A DNA stretch of 8,572 bases from Bacillota bacterium (GTDB taxonomy: Bacteria; Bacillota; DTU030; DUMP01), in the NCBI GenBank assembly GCA_012735455.1, contig JAAYHG010000320.1, positions 1 to 8,572 of the forward strand. The letters run 5' to 3'. The notes beneath the pieces were generated by a model. That model saw nothing but the letters and a program-made list of their open reading frames with translations, searched no databases and was not told the origin of the DNA. A program made the translations under genes and the position numbers. Below are positions 2,065 to 8,246 of this stretch, in pieces. Positions within the stretch are counted from its first letter, which is position 1, and each line of letters opens with the position of its first letter.

Positions 2065-3321
2065 ATGGAAAAATTTCTCATTGCGGGCGGCGCTGAACTC
2101 AGAGGTACTGTGCGGATAGCAGGGGCCAAGAATGCCACCCTGCCGATAATGGCCGCGTCCCTGCTGTGCCCTGGTATCTGTACCATTTATGACGTACCCG
2201 ACCTGCGGGATGTGCGGGTAATGTGTGAAATATTAACCCTGATGGGTGCTAAAGTTGAATACAAGGATGGAACATGCCAGCTTGACACCCGCAACATCTC
2301 TTCGGCAGAGGTGCCGGAGAATCTTATGCGGGAGATGCGCTCCTCGGTTTTCTTAATGGGGGCTCTACTGGGGCGACTTGGTCGTGTGAAGGTTTCTTAT
2401 CCAGGAGGGTGTGCCATTGGGCCGCGCCCCATCGATCTGCACCTAAAGGGTCTAGCCGCCCTGGGTACCCGCATTAGTGAGCGCCATGGTTACATGCTGG
2501 CTGAGGGCAGAGAATTGCGTGGCAGTGACGTTCACTTGGATTTTCCCAGCGTAGGTGCCACAGAAAACATAATGATGGCGGCAGTGCGTGCACGGGGCGT
2601 GACCCTTATCCGCAACGCCGCCAAGGAACCCGAGGTGGTAGATTTACAGAATTTCCTTAATAAGATGGGGGCTAGGATACGTGGTGCAGGCACCGACACG
2701 ATCAAGATCGAAGGCGTTCCCAGTCTTGGCCCCACTACCCACTCGGTAATCCCTGACCGAATTGAAGCCGGTACCTTTATGGTGGCAGCAGCCATGACCA
2801 AGGGCGATATATACTTGGAGAATGTGATTGCTGAACACGTTGAACCGGTAACCGCCAAGCTACGTGAAGCAGGAGCGGAAGTGGACACCAAGGGTGAGGG
2901 AATCCGCGTTACTGCTAGCGGTCGCCTGCAGGCTGTGGATGTAAAAACCCTCCCTTACCCGGGCTATCCCACCGACATGCAGCCACAGACCATGGCTATG
3001 CTCTCAGGTGCCGAAGGTACCAGTGTGATTATTGAGAACATCTTCGCTAACCGCTTTAAACACGTGGATGAACTGCGCCGTATGGGAGCGCAGATCAAGA
3101 TCGAAGGGCGAGCTGCTGTAATCCGGGGTGTAGAGCGTCTTAGCGGGGCGTTCGTAGAAGCCTCAGACCTTAGGGCCGGGGTTGCCCTGGTCTTGGCAGG
3201 CCTGGCGGCAGAGGGAGAAACGGTAATTGATAACATCTACCACATAGACCGCGGCTATGATTCTCTAGAAAAAAAACTAAAGGGCATTGGCGCCAAGATA
3301 GAACGAATTACAGACAGGTGA
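2065..3321 (+). CDS. murA: MurA, UDP-N-acetylglucosamine 1-carboxyvinyltransferase
   Basis: MurA transfers enolpyruvate from phosphoenolpyruvate to UDP-GlcNAc, the committed first step of peptidoglycan synthesis and the target of fosfomycin. The 418-residue protein has the normal length and fold signature (two EPT domains). Visible key residues are K22-N23 in GAKNATLPIMAASLL, the catalytic Cys116 in YPGGCAIGPRPIDLHLKG, Asp304 in PYPGYPTDMQPQ, Arg370 in ASDLRAG, and Arg396 in HIDRGYD. Having Cys rather than Asp at 116 predicts fosfomycin sensitivity at the enzyme level, which is inference from the family. The start is supported by GGGGGTG at 2050-2056, eight bases before the ATG. Firmicutes often have two paralogues (MurA and MurZ); position in the dcw cluster suggests the main housekeeping copy, but I cannot see whether another exists. 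Confidence 0.96.
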   Translation: MEKFLIAGGAELRGTVRIAGAKNATLPIMAASLLCPGICTIYDVPDLRDVRVMCEILTLMGAKVEYKDGTCQLDTRNISSAEVPENLMREMRSSVFLMGALLGRLGRVKVSYPGGCAIGPRPIDLHLKGLAALGTRISERHGYMLAEGRELRGSDVHLDFPSVGATENIMMAAVRARGVTLIRNAAKEPEVVDLQNFLNKMGARIRGAGTDTIKIEGVPSLGPTTHSVIPDRIEAGTFMVAAAMTKGDIYLENVIAEHVEPVTAKLREAGAEVDTKGEGIRVTASGRLQAVDVKTLPYPGYPTDMQPQTMAMLSGAEGTSVIIENIFANRFKHVDELRRMGAQIKIEGRAAVIRGVERLSGAFVEASDLRAGVALVLAGLAAEGETVIDNIYHIDRGYDSLEKKLKGIGAKIERITDR

Positions 3322-5230: not shown

Positions 5231-5249
5231 GTGCGTCCGGCATGAGTGC
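5231..5249 (+). repeat. Degenerate group II intron-like 5' end after the sbp terminator
   Basis: GTGCGTCCGGCATGAGTG (5231-5248) matches the start of the better preserved intron remnant at 5829 at 15 of 18 positions. All three differences are transitions, and the first short stem (GCGTCC / GAGTGC around GGCAT) keeps five of six pairs. It lies just behind a terminator hairpin, as does the copy at 5829. After these bases I see no further similarity to an intron, so this is at best a short relic. Chance or another small repeat remains possible. Confidence 0.45.
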
Positions 5250-5320
5250 CGTTCCGCGCCTTGGCGGAGATCGGGATGGGTCAATCGAATCGACGATCAC
5301 GCTAAGGGTAAATTTGCACA

Positions 5321-5335
5321 CTGCGTGGAACGCAG
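5321..5335 (+). other. Small perfect hairpin upstream of arsC
   Basis: CTGCGT (5321-5326) pairs with ACGCAG (5330-5335) around GGA. It is in the 189-bp sbp-arsC gap, about 45 nt before the arsC start and not overlapping its ribosome binding site. It could be a leader structure or operator half-sites; I know of no ArsR-type operator that it matches. I see no convincing promoter in this gap. Confidence 0.3.
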
Positions 5336-5379: not shown

Positions 5380-5775
5380 ATGATAAGAGTCGCATTTATT
5401 TGCGTCCACAATTCCTGCCGAAGCCAGATTGCTGAGGCGTTGGGGCGACATCTTGCCGGTGATGTTTTCAAGAGCTATTCAGCAGGGACGGAAACCAAGC
5501 CGCAGATTGATCAGACGGCCGTGCGGCTGATGAAGCAGCTTCATGGCATTGACATGGAAGCCACGCAACATAGTAAGCTCCTGTCCGACATTCCACCTGT
5601 GGATGTTGTGGTCACGATGGGCTGCAACGTCGAGTGTCCGTATCTGCCCTGCAAGCACCGTGAAGATTGGGGACTTGATGACCCCACAGGAAAAAGTGAC
5701 GAGGAATTTATTGAGGTTATACGGCGAATTGAAAGCAAGATTCTGTCTCTCAAAGAAAGGGTGAAGTCTTTGTAA
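5380..5775 (+). CDS. arsC: ArsC-type arsenate reductase / low-molecular-weight phosphatase family protein
   Basis: The 131-residue protein has the low-molecular-weight phosphatase fold signature. The P-loop FICVHNSCRSQ places the nucleophile at Cys8 with Arg14, YSAGTETKP follows (33-41), and the general-acid region is WGLDDPTGK (97-105). Three further cysteines, Cys82, Cys86 and Cys91, lie in VTMGCNVECPYLPC. The plasmid pI258-type ArsC uses Cys10, Cys82 and Cys89 in a disulfide cascade reduced by thioredoxin, so arsenate reduction is the better guess than tyrosine phosphatase. The start is the ATG with AAGGAGG at 5368-5374; the frame stays open upstream to 5242 but has no comparable ribosome binding site there. 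No arsR, arsB or acr3 is nearby, so the role in arsenic resistance is unproven. It has its own terminator. Confidence 0.82.
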   Translation: MIRVAFICVHNSCRSQIAEALGRHLAGDVFKSYSAGTETKPQIDQTAVRLMKQLHGIDMEATQHSKLLSDIPPVDVVVTMGCNVECPYLPCKHREDWGLDDPTGKSDEEFIEVIRRIESKILSLKERVKSL

Positions 5776-5798
5776 GACAATAGCGCATTCACCGCTGG

Positions 5799-5827
5799 GC
5801 AGGGCCTTCCGGAAGCCCTGCTTTCTT
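5799..5827 (+). terminator. Rho-independent terminator after arsC
   Basis: GCAGGGC (5799-5805) pairs with GCCCTGC (5815-5821); inside, TT/AA can pair around CCGG with C5806 bulged. TTTCTT follows (5822-5827). It lies 23 bp after the arsC stop. The intron-like sequence begins two bases after the T-tract. Confidence 0.82.
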
Positions 5828-5828
5828 G

Positions 5829-5973
5829 GTGTGCCCGGCATGGGTGTTGTCTACAGTGGGATAGTCCTGAACGGTGAGGGTGGCAGTGGCTGTTAGTTCA
5901 AGGCAGGGGTATCCACCGGTGGTGTGAGAGGGGATGGGGTTAGCTGCCTCCCGCTGCCCCCCTCCTAAGCGAT
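5829..5973 (+). mobile_element. Internally deleted group IIC intron remnant (both ends kept, no reverse transcriptase)
   Basis: The sequence opens with GTGTGCCCGGCATGGGTG, which agrees with the 5' end of bacterial class C group II introns such as that of Oceanobacillus iheyensis. It continues with conserved domain I pieces: TAGTCCTGAACGGTGAGGG (5862-5880), a TTAG segment (5893-5896) and GGCAGGGGTATCC (5902-5914). It then jumps to GGTGGTGTGAGAGG (5918-5931), which resembles the 3' strand of domain V and its linker. A domain VI-like stretch follows (GGGG ... CCCCTCCTAAG) and an end in CGAT (5970-5973). About 145 nt remain of an element that is normally 1.5-2 kb with its ORF. Most of domain I, domains II-IV, the 5' strand of domain V and the reverse transcriptase are gone, so it should not splice. 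It sits directly behind the arsC terminator, the usual target of class C introns. The comparison is from memory of the family sequence, not a search. Confidence 0.75.
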
Positions 5974-6064: not shown

Positions 6065-6087
6065 GGACGTACCATTGTTCTGGTAAT

Positions 6088-6097
6088 GGGGGGAGAG
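6088..6097 (+). promoter_or_regulatory. Ribosome binding site that selects TTG 6101
   Basis: GGGGGGAGAG lies five bases before TTG 6101, measured from GGGAG (6091-6095). The in-frame ATG at 6086 overlaps this motif and has no purine-rich site of its own, and the in-frame GTG at 5987 lies upstream of the promoter. The protein from TTG starts MDPVTHALAG, the expected N-terminus of the family. Confidence 0.7.
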
Positions 6098-6100
6098 ACT

Positions 6101-7042
6101 TTGGATCCAGTAACCCATGCCTTGGCCGGTCTTACTGTTGCCAGCTTATCCGGTGCAGAACTCAGTTTCACCAGCCCTGCTTACTTGGCTTCATTACTGG
6201 GTTCGCTGGCACCGGATTTAGATATTCTTCTTCAGTTTCGAGGCCACCTCACTTACCTCAAATACCACCGTGGCCCCAGTCATGCCCTGCCTGGACTCGT
6301 CCTCTCCGCCCTGGCGGTTACGTTCCTGCTAAGGCCCTATTTTCCAGAAGTGGCAAGTACGAGCATGTTCTTCTGGGGTTTCGCCGGCACCTTAACGCAC
6401 ACATTGCTCGATATACTAAACTCGTATGGGGCGAAGCCGTTTTGGCCTTTAAGTAACCGAAATGTAACAGCCAACCTTTTAACAATCTTTGACCCCGTAC
6501 TGGCTCTAGGACTCACCACCTTTCTATTTGGACAAGCCCGCCGTTCGCTTAGCTACATTTCTTTGGTCCTTGTCGTCGTCTACTTGGCTGGTCGCTGGTT
6601 AATGCTGAGGCGCGTTCAGGGCTTCTTACAGCATAAGTTTAGCGAGGAGGTAAAGCGGGTCGCTGTTCTCCCGTCGATGCTTAGCATCTGGAACTGGGCT
6701 TTTCTGGTGGAAACAGCAGTAGGGTATGTGGTCGGTGACATTCCCAGCTTTGCCCCGACGCTCCACGTCAGGCGGTGGCTACCAAAACCAAGCTCGACCC
6801 AGCTAATAGGACGGGCTCTCACTACCAAACTGGGGCAACTCTTCACTGATTTTACTCCGCTGTTCTATATCTCGTGCCAGGAAGAGGACGACCACAGTAT
6901 TGTCAAGTTTGTTGACCTACGCTACTTTGTTCGCGACGACTTTCTTCACAGTGCCACACTTGTATTTGATGAAGACCAGCGCCCTTTGGAAGGGCTGTTC
7001 CATCCCTATAATCCCGAGCGCAAGATTAAAGTGGCTGTTTAG
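6101..7042 (+). CDS. Membrane-bound metal-dependent hydrolase, DUF457/YdjM family
   Basis: From TTG 6101 the product is 313 residues. The family's metal-binding pattern is clear: His6 in DPVTHALAG, APDLD (37-41), YHRGPSHAL (55-63) and THTLLDILNSYGAKPFWP (99-116). Several hydrophobic helices follow (about 61-78, 88-105, 130-145, 150-168 and 200-225), so it is an integral membrane protein. The last about 90 residues are more polar. Members are annotated as metal-dependent hydrolases by motif; the substrate is unknown, and YdjM of Escherichia coli is mainly known as an SOS-regulated inner membrane protein. It has its own promoter and terminator and so is monocistronic. Nothing in the neighbours points to a pathway. 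If ATG 6086 is used instead, five residues are added. Confidence 0.85.
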   Translation: MDPVTHALAGLTVASLSGAELSFTSPAYLASLLGSLAPDLDILLQFRGHLTYLKYHRGPSHALPGLVLSALAVTFLLRPYFPEVASTSMFFWGFAGTLTHTLLDILNSYGAKPFWPLSNRNVTANLLTIFDPVLALGLTTFLFGQARRSLSYISLVLVVVYLAGRWLMLRRVQGFLQHKFSEEVKRVAVLPSMLSIWNWAFLVETAVGYVVGDIPSFAPTLHVRRWLPKPSSTQLIGRALTTKLGQLFTDFTPLFYISCQEEDDHSIVKFVDLRYFVRDDFLHSATLVFDEDQRPLEGLFHPYNPERKIKVAV

Positions 7043-7051
7043 AGCAACAAG

Positions 7052-7079
7052 AAATCCCTGCTTTGGGGCAGGGATTTTT
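7052..7079. terminator. Bidirectional terminator between convergent genes
   Basis: AAATCCCTGC (7052-7061) pairs perfectly with GCAGGGATTT (7068-7077) around TTTGGG. On the + strand five T follow from the stem end (7075-7079), serving the DUF457 gene. On the - strand the stem is followed by TTTCTTGTT-like sequence, 14 bp after the rubrerythrin stop, so it can serve both. Confidence 0.85.
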
Positions 7080-7092
7080 CCATTTACGAATT

Positions 7093-7644
7093 CTAGTTTC
7101 CGAAATAGCGCTTCAGTAATCCAGCGAAGGCTGCACCGTGGCGTGCCTCGTCCTTACACATCTCATGGACCGTATCATGGATTGCATCATAACCCAACTG
7201 TTTAGCCCTGGTAGCCAAGGTTTTTTTACCAGCGCAGGCACCGTGTTCTGCCTCCACACGCAGCTCAAGGTTCTTTTGCGTAGAGGCTGTAACTACTTCG
7301 CCCAACAGCTCGGCAAATTTAGCGGCGTGTTCCGCCTCTTCCCAAGCGATACGCTTGTAAGCCTCGGCCACTTCCGGGTAACCCTCCCGGTCGGCCTGGC
7401 GGCTCATGGCCAAGTACATGCCAACCTCTATGCACTCACCCATGAAATTGTCCTTTAAGCCCTGTACTACCTCTTCATCCAGGCCCTGGGCCACGCCAAC
7501 CTTGTGCTCATCGGCCCAGGCCAACGGTGCATTGTCTTTCTTCTCCACAAACTTGTCACTCTTTACGCCGCACTGGGGACATTTTTCCGGTGCGGTATCC
7601 CCAGTATGTACGTAACCACATACAGTGCAGACAAACTTTTTCAT
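7093..7644 (-). CDS. Reverse rubrerythrin (N-terminal rubredoxin-like plus ferritin-like diiron domain)
   Basis: The 183-residue protein starts with a rubredoxin-like Fe(Cys)4 domain, Cys6-x-x-Cys9 and Cys22-x-x-Cys25. A four-helix ferritin-like domain follows (about 53-182) with diiron ligand motifs: Glu70 in [11 protein letters not shown], the ExxH at Glu103-His106 ([10 protein letters not shown]), Glu133 in EAEHG, and the ExxH at Glu166-His169 (KDEARHG). The rubredoxin part is at the N-terminus, the reverse of classical rubrerythrin. In Clostridium this reverse form acts in NAD(P)H-linked reduction of H2O2 and O2, cytoplasmic and strongly oxygen-induced. The same peroxide reductase role is inferred here. 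The start is supported by AAGGAGG just upstream (complement of 7651-7658). It has its own strong promoter and shares a terminator with the convergent gene. Confidence 0.93.
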
Positions 7645-7838: not shown

Positions 7839-8159
7839 ATGATAGTAACCACGACGCCCGGGGTCGAAGGAAAGCGCATTGTGGAATACAAGGGCATAGT
7901 TTTTGGCGAGGTTATCTCAGGTGTGAATTTTCTCAAGGATTTTGCTGCCGGCCTATCCAACTTCTTCGGTGGCCGTTCCCAAGCCTACGAAGGCGAGCTC
8001 TTGGTAGCCCGGGAAGAAGCCTTGGCAGAGATGGAGCAGCGTGCGGCTGCTCTGGGCGCAAATGCAGTAGTAGGAGTTGATGTTGATTACGAAGTGCTCG
8101 GTTCCGGGGGTAACATGCTCATGGTGACAGCCTCAGGAACAGCAGTGGTGGTAGAATAA
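7839..8159 (+). CDS. YbjQ family protein (DUF74, UPF0145)
   Basis: The 106-residue cytoplasmic protein matches the YbjQ family over its full, usual length. It opens [19 protein letters not shown], has the [25 protein letters not shown] segment, then a helix of [29 protein letters not shown], and ends in a beta-rich GTAVVVE. The family is sometimes named a heavy-metal-binding domain and known structures are pentameric; a cellular function is not established. No cysteine or histidine is present, which weakens any metal-binding claim here. The start has GGAGGTG at 7827-7833. The gene is divergent from rubrerythrin across a 194-bp region; I see no convincing -35/-10 pair on the + strand there. 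Confidence 0.88.
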
Positions 8160-8246
8160 AGCAAAGATGTCCTGCTCGCCAGGCTTGGCCGCAGAGAGGC
8201 GGATAGGTGTGCGCAGTGAACGAGGAGTTGGAAAATCATCTGAAAA

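What the first reader, a model, noticed from the sequence alone, without database searches (positions are those of the whole stretch)
5829..5973. A 145-nt group IIC intron remnant with both termini kept
The 5' end (GTGTGCCCGGCATGGGTG and following domain I segments) and the 3' end (GGTGGTGTGAGAGG, a CCCCTCCTA stretch, CGAT) of a class C group II intron are fused, with the reverse transcriptase and catalytic core missing. It begins two bases after the T-tract of a terminator, the known class C target. Keeping both ends points to internal deletion, not end truncation, so it may be a small element spread by an intron-encoded protein acting in trans, or simply a dying copy.
Basis: partly seen in the sequence, partly recalled or inferred. 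Interest (0 to 1): 0.75.

Follow-up and report, generated by a model that had tools for sequence, protein, structure and literature searches.

The report
Dead, internally deleted class C intron
A 145-base leftover of a bacterial group II intron sits just after a terminator-like hairpin; it keeps both ends of the intron but has lost its enzyme gene and nearly all of its catalytic domain V, so it is most likely an ordinary dead copy.

Summary
Two covariance models built without the window find the 5' end of class C introns at 5829-5921 (58.7 bits, E 3.4e-15) and the 3' end (domain V tail plus domain VI) at 5917-5973 (37.3 bits, E 3.8e-7). The pieces meet at a 2-base overlap. About 1.8 kb of a ~2-kb intron is missing, including the reverse transcriptase gene and nearly all of domain V. 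The element is single copy; the assembled host genome shows no domain V hit and no full-length relative by DNA search; 7 of 44 otherwise invariant 5' columns are changed. I read it as an internally deleted, decayed copy; spread in trans is not supported for it. There is an interesting edge: six of 398 genomes of the phylum (this one included) hold both-ended minis behind hairpins, and one single-contig relative (G242) carries two 92-base minis with the same junction at unrelated sites, one of them empty in a congener. That pair is a candidate for a bacterial short internally deleted retroelement, or for a recurrent reverse-transcriptase jump, but it is not evidence about this copy.

The parts
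5797..5828 (+). terminator-like hairpin with T-rich tail TTTCTT and one G: the 5' exon side of the insertion
   Evidence: fold -14.8 kcal/mol, 20 of 200 shuffles at least as good; not listed by the terminator scan; same last seven bases before a full-length intron in Niallia circulans
5829..5918 (+). first ~90 bases of a class C intron (start of domain I)
   Evidence: model R1 5829-5921, 58.7 bits, E 3.4e-15; alignment with full-length introns
5917..5918 (+). CG, the bases shared by both sides at the deletion junction
   Evidence: alignment of both sides with full-length introns
5917..5922 (+). last ~6 bases of domain V; the rest of domain V is missing
   Evidence: alignment; no RF00029 match in G000 up to E 10; domain borders recalled
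5923..5973 (+). linker, domain VI with an enlarged loop, and the intron 3' end (GAT)
   Evidence: model R2 5917-5973, 37.3 bits, E 3.8e-7
5380..5775 (+). upstream neighbour: low-molecular-weight phosphatase / ArsC-like gene
   Evidence: PF01451, E 6.3e-18
6086..7042 (+). downstream neighbour: YdjM-family membrane protein gene
   Evidence: PF04307, E 1.2e-30

Best explanation
The 145 bases at 5829-5973 are the two ends of a class C group II intron joined to each other, most likely left when an internal deletion of about 1.8 kb removed the middle of a full-length copy that had inserted behind the terminator-like hairpin, and the remnant is predicted to be unable to splice or move. Shown: both termini, the junction, the absence of the reverse transcriptase gene and of nearly all of domain V from the element, single copy in the assembly, changes at conserved positions. 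Inferred: that a full-length copy once sat here, and that the loss was a DNA deletion rather than a jump of the reverse transcriptase at insertion; the 2-base overlap at the junction does not tell these apart. Without domain V and without domain I beyond its first ~90 bases, the RNA should not form the active site or the particle that carries class C introns to new hairpins (established knowledge of group II introns).
For: Both ends by independent models; junction against full-length introns; single copy; no domain V match and only this 5' piece when a full-length G001 intron is searched in G000; 7 of 44 invariant 5' columns changed against at most 2 of 46 when each intron is left out, 3 of 26 against at most 2 of 29 in the 3' part; domain VI loop of 3 model positions grown to 15 bases; in the single-contig relative G001, 11 of the 13 intron loci I fetched are remnants, one of them both-ended.
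Against: No relative with the same neighbourhood was found, so a former full-length copy at this site is not shown. Full-length introns may be missing from a 355-contig assembly; no protein search for an intron reverse transcriptase was made in G000. The intron-free state was not seen. Recurrent both-ended minis with partly shared breakpoints leave a non-random origin open.
Confidence: 0.85

Rival explanations
1. A short non-autonomous element: an internally deleted intron that was born or spread as a small unit through the reverse transcriptase of a full-length intron, by a jump over the middle during copying or in trans.
For: Both termini exact and behind a hairpin; both-ended minis in six of 398 genomes plus two by other searches; two 92-nt minis with one junction at unrelated sites in G242; G001 and G128 minis share the 5' breakpoint at nt 26, and G242 and UBA2598 minis both resume at the start of domain V.
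Against: Single copy in G000, no driver intron found there, decayed, domain V lost. In G001 both-ended is 1 of 11 remnants, no excess.
Confidence: 0.07
2. An assembly artefact: the middle of a full-length intron was lost when a fragmented genome was assembled.
For: G000 is in 355 contigs, and in G003 contigs break about 90-95 nt inside introns, close to the ~90 nt kept here on the 5' side.
Against: The copy is single and diverged, with an enlarged domain VI loop, so it is no repeat to confuse an assembler; no Ns; a 2-base overlap is too short for a join; similar minis exist in the single-contig genomes G001 and G242.
Confidence: 0.04
3. A functional remnant: a spliced group III-like intron or a structured RNA kept for a role in the host.
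For: It keeps a domain I start and a domain VI hairpin without domain V, the outline given for Euglena group III introns (PMC2882425, passages).
Against: It lies between genes. The fold is weaker than that of most shuffles (190 of 200 at least as stable, z +1.5; 57-nt 3' part z +0.44). No match over the full 145 nt in the other 7 family genomes.
Confidence: 0.02

Closest known systems
Bacterial class C (IIC) group II introns inserted after intrinsic terminators (PMC3522654 and PMC4424553, passages read)
   Same: 5' terminus, domain VI and 3' terminus, place right behind a hairpin
   Different: No reverse transcriptase gene, no domain V but its last ~6 bases, domain I cut at ~90 nt: a remnant, not an intron
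Group II intron fragments in Enterobacteriales and Sinorhizobium (PMC3522654 passages; PMC4496777 abstract and passages)
   Same: Inactive orphan fragment of a once mobile intron
   Different: PMC4496777 speaks of loss of the 3' terminus; here both termini are kept
ORF-less introns of Thermosynechococcus elongatus, mobilised by proteins of related introns (PMC2882425, passages read)
   Same: Derived by internal deletion
   Different: Those keep the ribozyme and lose the ORF, and 17 share one deletion; this one lost domain V and is single
R2 SIDEs of Drosophila (PMC3414825, abstract read)
   Same: 5' and 3' ends of a retroelement joined, middle missing; the G242 pair resembles them most
   Different: Another kind of retroelement, and no sign of spread for the window copy
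Euglena group III introns (named in PMC2882425, passage read)
   Same: Domain I-like and domain VI-like parts without domain V
   Different: Here intergenic, with no sign of splicing or of a conserved structure

Membership tests
Class C group II intron (intact) | class C 5' terminus | tested here: met
   R1 5829-5921, E 3.4e-15
Class C group II intron (intact) | domain VI and 3' terminus | tested here: met
   R2 5917-5973, E 3.8e-7
Class C group II intron (intact) | insertion behind an intrinsic terminator | tested here: inconclusive
   hairpin with TTTCTT tail, -14.8 kcal/mol, 20 of 200 shuffles as good; not listed by the scan; position as in full-length relatives
Class C group II intron (intact) | catalytic domain V | tested here: not met
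   only its last ~6 bases align; no Rfam match in the window at E <= 5, no RF00029 match in G000
Class C group II intron (intact) | reverse transcriptase / maturase gene | tested here: not met
   145 nt only; no such gene among the window ORFs, though not every ORF was searched against a family library
Class C group II intron (intact) | EBS1 / EBS3 target-pairing sites | not tested
   they lie further into domain I than the part kept here (recalled)
Trans-mobilised ORF-less intron | ribozyme core kept | tested here: not met
   domain V and most of domain I absent
Trans-mobilised ORF-less intron | several copies with the same deletion breakpoints | tested here: not met
   single copy in G000; the long-gap pattern found no other unit with this junction in 398 genomes
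SIDE-like short internally deleted element | 5' and 3' ends joined at a target site | tested here: met
SIDE-like short internally deleted element | copies of the same unit at different sites | tested here: not met
   not for the window unit; two such copies of another unit in G242
Group III-like intron | domain I and domain VI parts without domain V, spliced from a gene | not testable with these tools
   outline fits, but the site is intergenic; splicing needs RNA data

The most novel reading that the evidence does not exclude
Class C introns throw off short internally deleted elements, bacterial counterparts of R2 SIDEs: when the intron's reverse transcriptase copies its RNA at a new terminator it jumps over the folded middle from domain V or VI to the 5' end, or re-copies an RNA already shortened this way, so tiny both-ended units of about 55-245 nt land behind hairpins in one step. 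The window's 145-nt unit would be an old copy of this kind, and the two 92-nt minis with the same junction in G242 recent ones.
Probability: 0.12. Interest if true: 0.75.

Novelty: new member of a known kind. Interest (0 to 1): 0.33.

Why it matters
As a dead copy it is ordinary: one more inactivated group II intron, of a shape (both termini kept, domain V and enzyme gene gone) that a search by domain V or by the reverse transcriptase cannot see. Following it led to a set of such minis across a phylum and to one single-contig genome with two identical junctions at unrelated sites. If those are born or spread as minis, bacteria have short non-autonomous relatives of group II introns, and the two histories (deletion after insertion, jump at insertion) become testable.

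Tried and rejected
Second 5'-like end at 5231-5248, behind the hairpin that follows the DUF1290 gene (fold -25.4 kcal/mol, z -4.3): it fits a degenerate 18-mer that I wrote after seeing it (with up to 3 mismatches that pattern has 9 matches in G000 against 8 for its reversed control), but model R1 gives only 12.9 bits, E 0.013, below a probably chance match at 8101-8179 (13.7 bits). No 3' end seen for it. Not claimed.

Dropped from the minis after reading: G361 (L193), a 5' fragment whose CCTCCTA is not in a domain VI context, and G198 (L196, L197), two matches in a 131-nt tandem repeat array without a convincing domain VI. Kept by reading although model R2 did not find their short 3' pieces at E 0.05: G279 (L250), G128 (L247), Carboxydocella (L263; about 10 nt, the weakest). 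L245 was not found by R1, its 5' piece being about 20 nt.

Led nowhere: four pattern scans of viral contigs, 0 matches each; Rfam on the window; plasmid search with the 5231 region, short chance-like matches only. Orthologous site of the window element: YdjM protein found in 1 of 8 family genomes, the window's own. Downstream of DUF1290 I read four relatives (G001, G003, G004, G007) and saw other sequence; for G002, G005 and G006 the printed stretch was the other side of the gene, so they were not judged. For the G128 mini, the stretch between the flanks in G159 holds another open reading frame and the flanks in G209 lie 38 kb apart: uninformative. I looked for an excess of both-ended remnants in G001 and found none (1 of 11).

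Full report
What was checked. The window is contig C272 of an unnamed, fragmented genome (G000: 1,683,643 bases, 355 contigs, 93.2% complete). The finding lies between a low-molecular-weight phosphatase gene (5380-5775, PF01451) and a YdjM-family gene (6086-7042, PF04307). Rfam at E <= 5 shows no group II intron in the window.

Both ends are real. In many of the copies read it starts a ~1.9-kb intron that begins behind a terminator-like hairpin and ends with GGTGGTGTGAGAGG...CTCCTACTCGAT or a variant. In a named record, Alicyclobacillus sp. TC plasmid p1, a close relative of the 5' part lies upstream of a gene annotated ltrA, group II intron reverse transcriptase/maturase. I built one model from the first 92 nt of 12 introns and one from the domain V tail plus domain VI of 11, none from the window (40 full-length copies found in the fetched loci, 12 kept after removing near-duplicates). 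They hit the window at 5829-5921 (58.7 bits, E 3.4e-15) and 5917-5973 (37.3 bits, E 3.8e-7). The 3' model found nothing else in the window; the 5' model found two weak matches, at 8101-8179 (13.7 bits) and 5231-5326 (12.9 bits).

Junction. Aligned with full-length introns of G001, G007, G128, G370, Niallia and Cytobacillus, the window follows domain I to ...GGGGTATCCACCG, inside a small stem, and continues as CGGTGGTGTGAGAGG, the last bases of domain V and what follows. The two sides share CG (5917-5918), an overlap that chance gives easily. Full-length relatives in the same family (G001, G007) are about 1.97-2.0 kb, so about 1.8 kb is gone, including the reverse transcriptase gene and nearly all of domain V.

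State of the copy. The 201-base query finds only this place in G000; the 145-base query adds one 15-base match of E 0.74. RF00029 (domain V) gives no match in G000 up to E 10. A full-length G001 intron as query finds in G000 only this 5' piece at E <= 0.01. I made no protein search for an intron reverse transcriptase in G000. Over the first 80 alignment columns, the window differs at 7 of 44 columns invariant in the 12 introns; leaving each intron out in turn gives at most 2 of 46. In the 3' part it is 3 of 26 against at most 2 of 29. Two other minis, G378 and G279, differ at 3 and 6 of 44. The domain VI loop has grown from 3 model positions to 15 bases. The 145-nt RNA folds worse than most of its shuffles (z +1.5). 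This is what a decayed copy looks like. Caveat: full-length copies may be missing from a fragmented assembly; in G003 several contigs end about 90-95 nt inside introns.

How introns decay in this family. In G001, a single contig of 2.88 Mb, I fetched 13 intron loci. Two are full length (912615, 1689335). Six keep the 5' end but no 3' terminus (L230, L231, L234, L236, L237, L238; L236 also keeps inner pieces). Four keep the 3' side (L229, L232, L233 by model R2; L235 by BLAST only); L232 has a weak 5'-model match 1.4 kb upstream (16.3 bits, E 0.02). One is a 60-nt unit with both ends (L239: 26 nt of 5' end plus domain VI). Two of the 15 matches that one search counted in G001 were not listed. 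Remnants of several shapes occur, and the both-ended one (1 of 11) is not in excess.

Both-ended minis elsewhere. Two patterns (5' end, then CCTCCTA, or CCTCSTA for the shorter gap, within about 120 nt) were run over 398 genomes of the phylum; each found 5 genomes, and the reversed control columns show 0. After reading the loci I accept six genomes: G000 (145 nt), G378 (123), G279 (101), G242 (92), G001 (60) and G128 (56; lengths). I dropped G361 and G198. Two more came by other roads: a 120-nt unit in the MAG UBA2598 (L070) and a 244-nt unit on the Carboxydocella thermautotrophica plasmid, whose 3' piece is only about 10 nt. By eye, each starts behind a hairpin. The junctions differ between genomes, which speaks for separate events, but there is some recurrence: G001 and G128 leave the 5' end at the same base (nt 26) and resume a few bases apart in domain VI, and G242 and UBA2598 both resume at the start of domain V.

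The exception. G242, a single-contig genome, has two 92-nt units with one junction (19-21 nt of 5' end, then all of domain V and VI), differing at 3 of 92 positions. A pattern search of the 18 genomes of that family finds exactly these two. Their flanks are unrelated: the flanks of one have no second match in G242, and the flank of the other has one partial match, at a place where I saw no intron. In congener G400 the hairpin and the bases behind the second unit are joined without an insert, which fixes the unit's borders. For Thermosynechococcus, shared deletion breakpoints in 17 ORF-less introns were read as one deletion followed by spread (PMC2882425, passages). The same logic would make the G242 pair a spread unit. 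But the pair lacks nearly all of domain I, and that paper says that a driver protein must splice an intron to mobilise it. A repeated jump of the reverse transcriptase between the same points is another way to get identical junctions. R2 elements of Drosophila show both SIDEs and template jumps (PMC3414825, abstract).

Literature. Class C introns target terminators, and fragments generally have no counterpart of the same intron in their genome (PMC3522654, passages). Most bacterial copies are truncated or inactivated, and ORF-less introns nearly always live beside related introns whose protein may act in trans (PMC4424553, passages). Fragmentation was described with loss of the 3' terminus (PMC4496777, abstract and passages). 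Eight searches of the library, judged from their listings and the passages named, showed me no report of both-ended class C minis; most subscription papers are not in that library. That the target-pairing sites of class C introns lie further into domain I than the part kept here is recalled, not tested.

Verdict. The element is best read as a dead, internally deleted class C intron (0.85). Spread in trans is not supported for it. The pair in G242 deserves its own study.

Noticed in passing
L245 (G242:C1 near 2712198, - strand) and L248 (G242:C1 near 2923190, - strand): Two 92-nt class C minis (19-21 nt of 5' end fused to complete domains V and VI) with the same junction at unrelated hairpins; the site of L245 is empty in congener G400 (L289).
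   Followed up: partly
window 5231-5248 (+): GTGCGTCCGGCATGAGTG, a second class C 5'-end-like stretch, three bases (GTG) behind the T-poor tail of the hairpin that follows the DUF1290 gene; model R1 gives only 12.9 bits.
   Followed up: partly
L259 position 2292/2293, L173 position 32/33, L120 near 1993: A class C intron starts directly (or two bases) behind the domain VI end of another class C intron: the 3' hairpin of one seems to serve as the target of the next.
   Followed up: no
L196, L197 (G198:C36 near 14000): GTGTGCCCGGCATGGGCG occurs twice in a 131-nt tandem repeat next to further similar hairpin units; origin unclear.
   Followed up: no
L255 (G007:C242), 2866 (- strand) and 2979-3014 (+ strand): A 5' end and a 3' end of a class C intron lie about 110 nt apart in opposite orientations, as if an inversion or rearrangement had passed through a remnant.
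   Followed up: no
L005, L009, L010, L022 and further loci of NZ_KV440945.1: Cytobacillus gottheilii carries many nearly identical full-length class C introns behind hairpins, a large proliferation on one scaffold.
   Followed up: no
window 7025-7099 (+): Weak Rfam match to a Brucella sRNA (21.5 bits, gathering 114): a strong hairpin with a T-tail behind the YdjM gene, probably just its terminator.
   Followed up: no
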